Assembly: GCA_019637395.1 (NCBI GenBank)
Contig: JAHBVR010000022.1
Coordinates: forward strand, 1-64,000
Direction of reading: 5' to 3'
DNA length: 64,000 nt
Source of the DNA: Vulcanimicrobiota bacterium
GTDB lineage: Bacteria > Vulcanimicrobiota > Xenobia > Xenobiales > JADMJV01
Position numbers and translations under genes: made by a program
In this document: positions 62,201-64,000 of the stretch, in pieces
Layout: each line of letters starts with the position of its first letter
Position numbering within the stretch: the first letter of the stretch is position 1
The notes under the pieces: model-generated
What the model was told of the DNA's origin: nothing
What the model saw: the letters and a program-made list of their open reading frames with translations, nothing else
The model's database searches: none

Positions 62201-62665
62201 ACCCGCTCTCCGGAGAAGGCGCGTGCCTACCTTGGCCAACTGCAGGTCAGCAGACGGTTCGAGCTGATGATCGGGCTGATCTTTCAGTTGGAGCCATGGG
62301 TCTGGCAGGAGTTATGCGCCTGGCATCCCGACCCGGGGCTGCTCGGTCGGGAGCAAGTGAAACGGGCCTGGCTGGTGGCGCGGAACAGCCCGCGGTTGGG
62401 CGCCTGGCTAGAAGCGAGTGGCCTGGCGAAAAATCGTGAGCAGGTCGTCTTGCTCCATGAGCGCGGACATTTGAAAGAGGAGCTGGCCGGAATACACGTC
62501 GTGGAAAATGGCCGGCAGGTCCTGGCGGATGCGCGCATACAGCCGGTCGGTCCCCTGGCCCAGGCGGAGCCCCGGGTGCTCCCGGCGGACCAGGTCGATG
62601 CCCTGGCAGGCGCAGAGGAATTCGACGGCCAGCGTCATCTGCACGCCTTCCAGGATGCGCAGTAG
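59297..62665 (+). CDS. Very large cytoplasmic protein, unknown, 3' end overlapping the lyase gene
   Basis: ATG 59297 follows GAGG and gives 1122 residues, rich in Leu, Arg and Trp and mainly helical, without signal peptide or membrane helix. Residues ~510-580 are distinctive: FFQALRMGSDFNTCLSLQNG, AYAFSALVNALDMNKQVLYL, RQLVAVTQGGDLIAYPIYG. I have a sense of such segments in unannotated proteins of large-genome bacteria but no name. The last ~85 codons (62408-62665) lie antisense to the lyase gene and read like a shadow of it, so the native stop was probably earlier and lost. Confidence 0.7.
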   Translation: MHLPYPGRLRPWVRFRTPRGWVEAKPNHSLSLIVWSEMLWDSISGGYCGRIQRNVTACQSISAPLALEKEVCPQSKSALLEMGRYQPAEAALRWGQIHTHSPVPWPRWKRWAALARRRLWPLGLLLELARADSEAELLEPTANFPLWAEELAVTAANWFGAECGARTWNSFCRALTPEAQELRWKLAVVCQLEPPACCDDACLETLLEVLQRCHPANRPHWELLLAADTGDSEELARAWKQPLSADQLEWLVLESEGCSEVIDKAPERLAEFLNFRQEFGSLEQSELAGLFLETQDFRRRALLLTCLVHLQSAAPSAALLRAARATPLGSRVLSAAARWERVDEPSALSVAGLQPEQLARLSHWRSLNGEGQRWPKSLRRWLDRQDQWRSQHDELKRLLKLQQNFEATLRASACRAWRKLLREVTLDLLEDWCGQPLREDQLELGWLLRWPKLTRQHLQLALRGNPDANLDWLARKAPGCLKQEVWRRGLSGRIDWRGRELRAETADFFQALRMGSDFNTCLSLQNGAYAFSALVNALDMNKQVLYLRQPGGQAVLRQLVAVTQGGDLIAYPIYGRKSPELTRLWEELVNDYAGRCGLGRTKDGEVLQLFDTGEYYYTDSIEETALDVRDELDFLQDPTRLSPLSAWSQVRCFLHALHGSGPPVTNRPVIQRLAETGKTCWLHRLARGRLDQRFIEALDYRADPEPLAGYLLRARKPLKRTVRELPVALLGLSFDRLARVLACLRGKGWRDYHMVHQVEILLYVSWLLRPDLPAFWHHLRQSDLAHNLWRLYSLLPESPFDCLLKRAPPGHTVEWRMAASRFCPEDARQALLQNPRRWTCALGLAASGCPSVALAPIPMRSQYEEMAFCEILGNSPSDLTWSVSRFSFQALRQGLQGDRLALKEWAFRGHPGQREWRLKLLARLCRQGDLNLDCLGDWFREEGSTSWAALDQQPEWSYLEDSRVAVALTRSPEKARAYLGQLQVSRRFELMIGLIFQLEPWVWQELCAWHPDPGLLGREQVKRAWLVARNSPRLGAWLEASGLAKNREQVVLLHERGHLKEELAGIHVVENGRQVLADARIQPVGPLAQAEPRVLPADQVDALAGAEEFDGQRHLHAFQDAQ

Positions 62666-63970
62666 CTTACGCACGGCCGTCATGCCCATGCTGTTATGGT
62701 CTTCCTGGTTGTTTTTTGAGGGCATGGAGCCGACGCTGGCCGGAGTGGCGTGCACGCGCATTTCGCTGACCAGGGCGGTGGCGTTGGCCTGAATCAGGGC
62801 AAACCCGGTGTTGAGGCCCTGTTGCTCGGCCACCAGGTTGAGAGGCAGGCCGTGGCTCATGGTGGGGTCGAGCAGGCGGGCCGAGCGGCGTTCCGAGAGC
62901 ACCGACAGATCGGTCATGACGATGGCCGCCAGGTCCATGGCGTAACTGGTCAAGGAGCCATGGAAATTGCCGCCGCTGAGGCTGTCGAATTGACCGTCCT
63001 CGCCTTCGAAGAACATGGGATTGTGGGTGGAGGCGTTGAGACCGCGGGCCAGCACCGTTTCCACATAGGCCAGCGTGTCGCGTACGGCGCCGTGAATTTG
63101 CGGACCCGAGCGAAAGCTGACCGGATCCTGCACGCGCGGGCCGGTGCTGAAGAGCTGGTTGCCTAAAAACTGGCTACCCCGCACCAGGCGGCGCACACAT
63201 TCGGCGCTGTGGATCTGGCCGGCGATGCCGCGAGCCTGGTGCACCCGGGGGTCGTAGGCGTCGATTTCGCCGCGCAGGGCTTCCATGTTCAGGGCCAGGG
63301 CGGCGTCGGCCAGGTCGATGAGCCGGCTGGCCTTATGATAGGCCAGCAGGGAGGCGGCGTAGAGAACCGTGCCGCCGCTGATGAGAGCCAGCGCTTCCAG
63401 ACGGGCCAGCGGAAAATAGATGGGATCGACGCCGGCCTTACGCAGGATGTCGGGGGCCGGTCCCACCTCGCCGGCGAACTTGAGCTCTCCTTCGGGCATT
63501 CCGGTCAGGCATAAGCCCAACTGGGCCATCGGTTGCAGATCGCCCACCCCCAGTGAGCCGATTTGGCGAAGCATCGGGTAGACCCGGTGATTGATCAGAG
63601 TCAGCAGGCGCTCCACCAGCTCCGGGCGCACGCCGGCGTGTCCGCGCGAGAGCACGTTGGCCCGCAGCAGCAGAGCCAACCGGGAGATCTTATCGTTGAA
63701 GTAGGGGCCGATGCCGGTGGCGTGAGAGTGCAGGATATTGATCTGGAAGAGAGCCTGATCCTCGGCGTGGACGGTAAAGTCTTTGAGGCGGCCCAGCCCG
63801 GTGTGATAGCCGTAGACCATCTTGGTGCCGCTGGCCAACAGCCGGTCGACTCCTTGCTGGTAGCGTTCCATATGGCGCCGGGCCGAGGGGTTGAGGCTGA
63901 CCATCAGCTCATCGTCCGCCAGAAACTGCTGGACCTTGTCGATGGTGAGGGAATGGCCGTCGATTTCCAC
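62408..63970 (-). CDS. HAL/PAL-superfamily ammonia-lyase homolog without the MIO tripeptide
   Basis: The 520-residue protein follows histidine/phenylalanine ammonia-lyase closely: YGYHTGLGRL, LHSHATGIG, LALLLRANVLSRGHAGVRPE, QDPVSFRSGPQIHGAV, STHNPMFFEG, SLSGGNFHGS, LSERRSARLLDP and NNQEDHNSMG. The block that should read GSVGASGDLAP reads GSLGVGDLQP, so Ala-Ser-Gly, which cyclises to the MIO electrophile, is replaced by a single Val before Gly. The YGxNTGFG Asn is His. Deamination by the MIO route is therefore unlikely; it may have another reaction or none. A GTG start at 63970 follows the upstream stop directly. Confidence 0.88.
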   Translation of the reverse strand: MEIDGHSLTIDKVQQFLADDELMVSLNPSARRHMERYQQGVDRLLASGTKMVYGYHTGLGRLKDFTVHAEDQALFQINILHSHATGIGPYFNDKISRLALLLRANVLSRGHAGVRPELVERLLTLINHRVYPMLRQIGSLGVGDLQPMAQLGLCLTGMPEGELKFAGEVGPAPDILRKAGVDPIYFPLARLEALALISGGTVLYAASLLAYHKASRLIDLADAALALNMEALRGEIDAYDPRVHQARGIAGQIHSAECVRRLVRGSQFLGNQLFSTGPRVQDPVSFRSGPQIHGAVRDTLAYVETVLARGLNASTHNPMFFEGEDGQFDSLSGGNFHGSLTSYAMDLAAIVMTDLSVLSERRSARLLDPTMSHGLPLNLVAEQQGLNTGFALIQANATALVSEMRVHATPASVGSMPSKNNQEDHNSMGMTAVRKLLRILEGVQMTLAVEFLCACQGIDLVRREHPGLRLGQGTDRLYARIRQDLPAIFHDVYSGQLLFQMSALMEQDDLLTIFRQATRF

Positions 63971-64000
63971 TTAGTCGGCCAGGGCGTAGGCGGCGATGGA
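63971..64000 (-). CDS. 3' end of a gene running off the window
   Basis: Nine codons are visible (SIAAYALAD then TAA at 63971-63973) directly before the lyase start, so the two genes probably form an operon. The product cannot be told from this much. Confidence 0.4.
   Translation of the reverse strand, partial: SIAAYALAD

What the first reader, a model, noticed from the sequence alone, without database searches (positions are those of the whole stretch)
63535..63575. Ammonia-lyase homolog has lost the MIO-forming Ala-Ser-Gly
The rest of the protein matches the HAL/PAL superfamily in order and length, but the cofactor loop reads GSLGVGDLQP where GSVGASGDLAP is expected, one residue shorter. 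MIO forms only by cyclisation of Ala-Ser-Gly, so the usual deamination cannot occur. An adjacent Asn (in YGxNTGFG) is His. The remaining fold motifs (SGGNFHG, NNQEDHNSMG) are preserved, which argues against simple decay and for a changed function.
Basis: partly seen in the sequence, partly recalled or inferred. Interest (0 to 1): 0.75.

Follow-up and report, generated by a model that had tools for sequence, protein, structure and literature searches.

The report
MIO-less ergothionase-like lyase in ergothioneine operon
This bacterial relative of histidine ammonia-lyase has really lost its built-in cofactor and sits in an operon for breaking down the antioxidant ergothioneine, where it most likely removes trimethylamine instead of ammonia; known ergothioneine-degrading enzymes lack the same cofactor, but this one belongs to a separate, so far unlabelled branch closer to ordinary histidine ammonia-lyases.

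Summary
Two further residues that all 57 MIO-type sequences in my alignment keep are also changed: HAL Asn195 to Ser and Tyr280 to Val. The loop is shared by a 92%-identical gene in a second genome of the genus and by 49 of the 80 relatives fetched (Bacillota, Actinomycetota); dN/dS is 0.07.

Just past the window end lie a thiohydantoin desulfurase, touching the lyase, and a thiourocanate-hydratase-like gene. A Brevibacillus homologue sits in an operon that also holds ErtD-like and ErtE genes and a betaine-type ABC importer. The lyase occupies the ergothionase slot. Ergothionase is published as a MIO-less HAL homologue.

Best reading: a MIO-independent trimethylamine lyase acting on ergothioneine. 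In trees it forms its own clade, nearer MIO enzymes than to the characterised ergothionases. Separate loss of MIO is favoured but not proven (AU p = 0.18). So: known chemistry, new unlabelled subfamily.

The parts
62408..63970 (-). MIO-less HAL/PAL-superfamily lyase, 520 aa, GTG start; predicted ergothionase-like trimethylamine lyase
   Evidence: PF00221 484 bits, full length; HutH models match but below cut-off (431 vs 539); AF2 model pLDDT 89.5, fold matches HAL (TM 0.89-0.90) and ergothionase 6s7j (TM 0.86)
63530..63559 (-). Former MIO loop, residues 138-147 GSLGVGDLQP; Ala-Ser-Gly absent, one residue shorter
   Evidence: gap at Ala142 in 50/50 clade members
63377..63379 (-). Ser198, equivalent of HAL Asn195
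   Evidence: Asn in 57/57 MIO sequences; Ser 46 / Asp 4 of 50 in the clade; Ser in 6/7 ergothionase-type sequences
63119..63121 (-). Val284, equivalent of HAL Tyr280
   Evidence: Tyr in 57/57 MIO sequences; Val 45 / Thr 5 of 50 in the clade; Leu in 7/7 ergothionase-type sequences
63782..63784 (-). Lys63, in YGYHTGLGRLKD
   Evidence: Lys in 50/50 clade members, 6/7 ergothionase-type, 11/57 MIO
62714..62716 (-). Lys419 (HAL position 410), just before the QEDH motif
   Evidence: Lys in 49/50 clade members, 1/57 MIO (only A. vitis L037), 0/7 ergothionase-type
63971..64000 (-). 3' end of the thiohydantoin desulfurase gene (continues to G000:C15:65059, outside the window); its TAA stop is followed directly by the GTG start of the lyase
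   Evidence: NF058529 478.7 bits over cut-off 440; junction sequence

Best explanation
The gene encodes a MIO-independent lyase that most likely splits trimethylamine off ergothioneine (2-thiohistidine betaine), giving thiourocanate. The neighbouring urocanase paralogue would then hydrate thiourocanate, and the thiohydantoin desulfurase would take the sulfur off the resulting thiohydantoin propionate. A quaternary trimethylammonium is already a good leaving group, so the electrophilic MIO that activates a primary amine is not needed; acid/base residues of the HAL scaffold, possibly including the clade-specific Lys63 and Lys419 with Glu423, would do the work. Shown: loop loss, the conserved clade, the residue changes, purifying selection, gene order. 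Inferred: substrate, product and the catalytic roles of individual residues.
For: The operon is tight: desulfurase stop directly followed by the lyase start, hydratase and desulfurase overlapping. The desulfurase passes the curated cut-off (478.7 vs 440), and the hydratase scores 901 for thiourocanate hydratase against 646 for urocanate hydratase, a little under the 930 cut-off. The Brevibacillus SYP-B805 homologue lies in an operon with thiourocanate hydratase 1038.6 (cut-off 930), desulfurase 617.6 (440), ErtE 582.6 (520), an ErtD-like hydrolase (527, cut-off 650) and an OsmF/ProVW-type ABC importer. All 7 nearest relatives carry the desulfurase within 8 kb, and the six from Bacillota also ErtD/ErtE-like genes; none of 31 MIO-type loci has the desulfurase. 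Characterised ergothionase is described as lacking MIO (PMC13405746). T. denticola ergothionase 6s7j shares the shortened loop, Ser at 195, an aliphatic residue at 280, and Lys63.
Against: No activity data. The query clade does not group with the characterised ergothionases, and its loop residue is Val/Thr where theirs is mostly Glu. The window's hydratase is just under its curated cut-off. No clear ErtD or ErtE was found in this genome. Of 41 actinobacterial members of the clade, 38 have no desulfurase in the stretch fetched (some stretches are short), so the function may not hold for the whole clade.
Confidence: 0.82

Rival explanations
1. It is a MIO-free betaine lyase, but its natural substrate is not ergothioneine itself: for example ergothioneine sulfonate, S-methyl-ergothioneine or hercynine.
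For: The genome also has an EgtD-type histidine methyltransferase (297.8 bits, cut-off 290.9), so hercynine may be present; S-methyl variants of the hydratase and desulfurase exist as NCBIfam models.
Against: The neighbours score clearly higher for the thio models than for the S-methyl ones: hydratase 901 vs 721, desulfurase 479 vs 283. A desulfurase would be pointless for hercynine.
Confidence: 0.1
2. It is a pseudoenzyme kept as a structural or regulatory partner, with no catalysis.
For: The MIO tripeptide, Asn195 and Tyr280, all needed in HAL, are gone.
Against: The same three positions are changed in the characterised ergothionase. The replacements are uniform, other active-site residues (Tyr53, His83, Arg283, Phe329, Glu414) are kept in the query, and it sits where the pathway needs an enzyme.
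Confidence: 0.05
3. It is a sequencing error or decaying copy of an ordinary HAL.
For: None beyond the missing residue itself; the genome has another, canonical HAL with ASG at C33.
Against: Independent genomes and other phyla share the loop; dN/dS 0.069; open over 520 codons.
Confidence: 0.01

Closest known systems
Ergothionase (ergothioneine trimethylamine lyase) of Treponema denticola (PDB 6s7j/6s7q) and the Burkholderia type
   Same: HAL-superfamily fold; loop one residue short without Ala-Ser-Gly; Ser at HAL Asn195, aliphatic at Tyr280, Lys63; linked in several genomes to thiourocanate hydratase, thiohydantoin desulfurase, ErtD and ErtE
   Different: Only about 27% identical and in a separate clade (100/99); loop reads SSIGEGDI or GSIGEADI, not GSLGVGDLQP; no Lys at 410; IED instead of QED; the Burkholderia arboris gene begins with a signal-peptide-like stretch
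Histidine ammonia-lyase HutH (PpHAL 1b8f/1gkm) and SgTAM
   Same: Full-length homology, 33% identity in the fold alignment to PpHAL, SGGNFHG and QEDH motifs, Tyr53, His83, Arg283, Phe329, Glu414
   Different: No Ala-Ser-Gly, so no MIO; Asn195 and Tyr280 replaced; below HutH curated cut-offs
Agrobacterium vitis 'histidine ammonia-lyase' L037:7986-9599
   Same: Shares Lys63 and the Lys419 equivalent with the query clade; lies next to ErtD (746 bits, cut-off 600) and ErtE-type hydrolases; sister to the clade in trees (92-93 bootstrap)
   Different: Keeps Ala-Ser-Gly, Asn195 and Tyr280, so it should be MIO-dependent; no hydratase or desulfurase nearby

Membership tests
Ergothionase (as function) | HAL/PAL-superfamily fold | tested here: met
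   PF00221 full length; AF2 model TM 0.86-0.90 to 6s7j and HAL
Ergothionase (as function) | No MIO-forming tripeptide | tested here: met
   known ergothionases share the shortened loop
Ergothionase (as function) | Genomic link to thiourocanate hydratase and thiohydantoin desulfurase | tested here: met
   the hydratase in this genome is slightly below its curated cut-off
Ergothionase (as function) | Releases trimethylamine and thiourocanate from ergothioneine | not testable with these tools
   Needs an enzyme assay
Ergothionase (as function) | Catalytic residues reported for the T. denticola enzyme | not tested
   The structure paper is not held
Ergothionase (T. denticola/Burkholderia clade) | Descends from the same MIO-less ancestor | tested here: inconclusive
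   Separate clades in three trees; AU test does not reject one MIO-less clade, p = 0.18
Histidine ammonia-lyase (MIO-dependent) | Ala/Ser/Cys-Ser-Gly tripeptide forming MIO | tested here: not met
Histidine ammonia-lyase (MIO-dependent) | Asn195 and Tyr280 | tested here: not met
   Ser198 and Val284
Histidine ammonia-lyase (MIO-dependent) | Score over HutH curated cut-off | tested here: not met
   431 vs 539 and 450 vs 524 bits

The most novel reading that the evidence does not exclude
Ergothionase activity, and loss of MIO, arose a second time inside the HAL lineage from a MIO-dependent ancestor resembling the A. vitis enzyme, arriving at the same changes as the T. denticola/Burkholderia ergothionases (one-residue loop deletion, Asn195 to Ser, Tyr280 to aliphatic, Lys63). 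The mirror reading, that this clade is a relic from before MIO evolved, is also not excluded (roughly 0.15-0.2).
Probability: 0.55. Interest if true: 0.65.

Novelty: new variant of a known kind. Interest (0 to 1): 0.5.

Why it matters
It turns a puzzling broken enzyme into a specific prediction and shows that ergothionase-like lyases are wider spread than BLAST with the Burkholderia enzyme suggests: PMC13405746 found only HAL-like hits and called ergothionase rare, while warning that divergent homologues could be missed. NCBIfam has models for the other pathway steps, but none of the lyases scanned here, query or Burkholderia type, hit an ergothionase model. If MIO was lost twice with the same substitutions, the family is a natural replicate for asking what a MIO enzyme must change to work without it.

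Tried and rejected
Resequencing error or decay (rejected). Importance of the Asn-to-His change (rejected: variable site). Simple membership in the T. denticola/Burkholderia ergothionase clade (not supported by trees). Proof of independent MIO loss: sought with masked alignments, AU tests and more HAL sequences from Bacillota and Actinomycetota; only one MIO-bearing sister, L037, turned up, so it stays open. Searching for the published catalytic residues of ergothionase: papers not held. Neighbours of the desulfurase-less actinobacterial members gave no consistent partner.

Full report
Observation. The window holds an open reading frame at 62408-63970 on the minus strand, 520 codons from a GTG. 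It matches Pfam Lyase_aromatic over the whole model at 484 bits, and falls below the HutH cut-offs of NCBIfam. The stretch 63530-63559 translates to GSLGVGDLQP. Aligned to P. putida HAL, the column of Ala142 is empty, Ser143 is Val142 and Gly144 is Gly143; Asn195 is Ser198, Tyr280 is Val284, and Lys63 and Lys419 replace Ala63 and Ser410. In my alignment 57 of 57 MIO-type sequences keep Ser143, Asn195 and Tyr280. That Asn195 and Tyr280 matter for MIO enzymes is my own knowledge of HAL mutagenesis.

Not an error. The window is the start of contig C15 of a 7.66 Mb genome that also has a canonical HAL with ASG on contig C33. A second genome of the genus has a 92% identical copy with the same loop; a record of Candidatus Eremiobacterota carries what appears to be the same copy. 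Between the two copies dN/dS is 0.069, like that of the neighbouring genes. Among 98 relatives searched, mostly of the same phylum, only these two have a match above 41% identity.

A clade. A scan of one genome per species with an alignment of MIO-less sequences returned 80 loci: 49 have a loop of the form GS(L/T)GxGDLQP, 31 have a normal MIO loop, none is in between. The nearest MIO-less ones outside the genus are Brevibacillus (55-57%) and Lederbergia (about 50%), then many Actinomycetota (40-43%). In 50 members including the query, Lys63, Gln147 and the Ala142 gap are invariant, Asn195 is Ser or Asp, Tyr280 is Val or Thr, and Lys410 occurs in 49.

The neighbours. Beyond the window end the same strand carries, in order of transcription, a CitMHS/ArsB-type permease, a urocanase paralogue, a protein of the S-Me-THD (DUF917) family, and the lyase. 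The urocanase paralogue scores 901 bits for thiourocanate hydratase (cut-off 930) against 646 for urocanate hydratase; the S-Me-THD protein scores 478.7 for thiohydantoin desulfurase (cut-off 440). The desulfurase stop codon is followed at once by the lyase start, and hydratase and desulfurase overlap by four bases. In Brevibacillus SYP-B805 the MIO-less lyase sits with thiourocanate hydratase (1038.6), desulfurase (617.6), an ErtD-like hydrolase (527, below its cut-off), ErtE (582.6, above) and an ABC importer of the OsmF/ProVW type. An ergothioneine-specific importer of this osmoprotectant-uptake type has been described (PMC9732360). All seven nearest relatives have the desulfurase nearby, and all six from Bacillota have ErtD- and ErtE-like genes. 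None of the 31 MIO-type loci has the desulfurase (Fisher p = 0.006 against all 49 MIO-less loci; related loci are not independent, so this p is only indicative).

What it does. Steps two to five of the ergothioneine pathway are thus present around this lyase in Brevibacillus, and the lyase fills the slot of step one, ergothionase. Ergothionase is described as a trimethylamine lyase structurally similar to ammonia-lyases that lacks MIO (PMC13405746). The T. denticola enzyme 6s7j, read from an alignment, has the loop SSIGEGDI, Ser at 195, Leu at 280 and Lys at 63. Loci with the remaining Ert genes on a Deinococcus plasmid and in Burkholderia arboris carry lyases with a loop shortened in the same way. 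The explanation is chemical: a primary amine needs MIO to become a leaving group, a trimethylammonium does not. This last step is inference from general chemistry.

Is it the same enzyme family? By fold yes, by descent unclear. In trees built without the diagnostic columns the query clade is supported 100/100, the T. denticola/Burkholderia ergothionases form another clade at 100/99, and a strongly supported branch puts the query clade on the side of the MIO enzymes (also with all columns). One MIO-bearing protein, from Agrobacterium vitis (L037), comes out as its sister (92-93 bootstrap). It shares Lys63 and Lys410, columns not used in the masked trees, and lies beside ErtD and ErtE. Lys410 occurs in 1 of 57 MIO sequences in the tally and in none of 30 further ones from Actinomycetota. 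This favours a second, separate loss of MIO. But forcing all MIO-less sequences together costs only 4.6 log units, p-AU 0.18. So independent loss is favoured, not shown, and a relic from before MIO cannot be excluded.

Structure. An AF2 model from 35 sequences has mean pLDDT 89.5; its best PDB matches are HALs, TM 0.89-0.90, then TAM and ergothionase 6s7j, TM 0.86. It confirms the fold and nothing about catalysis.

Limits. There is no assay. The genome has no clear ErtD or ErtE, only generic relatives (199 and 321 bits against cut-offs of 650 and 520). The substrate could be a close relative of ergothioneine. Most actinobacterial members begin with signal-peptide-like stretches and lack the pathway genes nearby, so their role is open; four of them (L056, L068, L088, L094) do lie beside pathway genes.

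Noticed in passing
L142:6001-7533 (Klebsiella pneumoniae plasmid pQDE2-C), P0001: Another HAL homologue with a destroyed MIO loop (GGSVGYLIATA), Asn195 to Gly and Tyr280 to Leu, next to a canonical HutU (1019.6 bits), HutC, HutD, a formimidoylglutamate deiminase and an ABC importer. A lead: a MIO-free lyase feeding urocanate would fit hercynine (histidine betaine) use.
   Followed up: partly
L037:5237-9599 (Agrobacterium vitis plasmid): HAL with intact Ala-Ser-Gly but the Lys63/Lys410 of the MIO-less clade, beside ErtD and ErtE-type hydrolases and ABC transporters; may act on a primary-amine histidine analogue.
   Followed up: partly
L140:6932-8572 (Sinorhizobium meliloti pSymA): Ergothionase-type MIO-less protein annotated as hutH, close to a gene annotated as DMSP lyase and an ABC transporter; no other pathway gene nearby.
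   Followed up: no
L035, L036, L048-L070 and similar actinobacterial loci: Exported-looking MIO-less lyases (signal-peptide-like N-termini) with GGNWDG in place of GGNFHG and no pathway genes nearby in most; function open.
   Followed up: partly
window:59297-62665(+): A 1122-aa ORF convergent with the lyase, overlapping its 3' end by 258 bases; in the sister genome (L040) the counterpart overlaps by only about 47 bases.
   Followed up: no
G000:C20:87888-88796 (L169): EgtD-type histidine methyltransferase (297.8 bits, cut-off 290.9): the organism may make as well as break down ergothioneine.
   Followed up: partly
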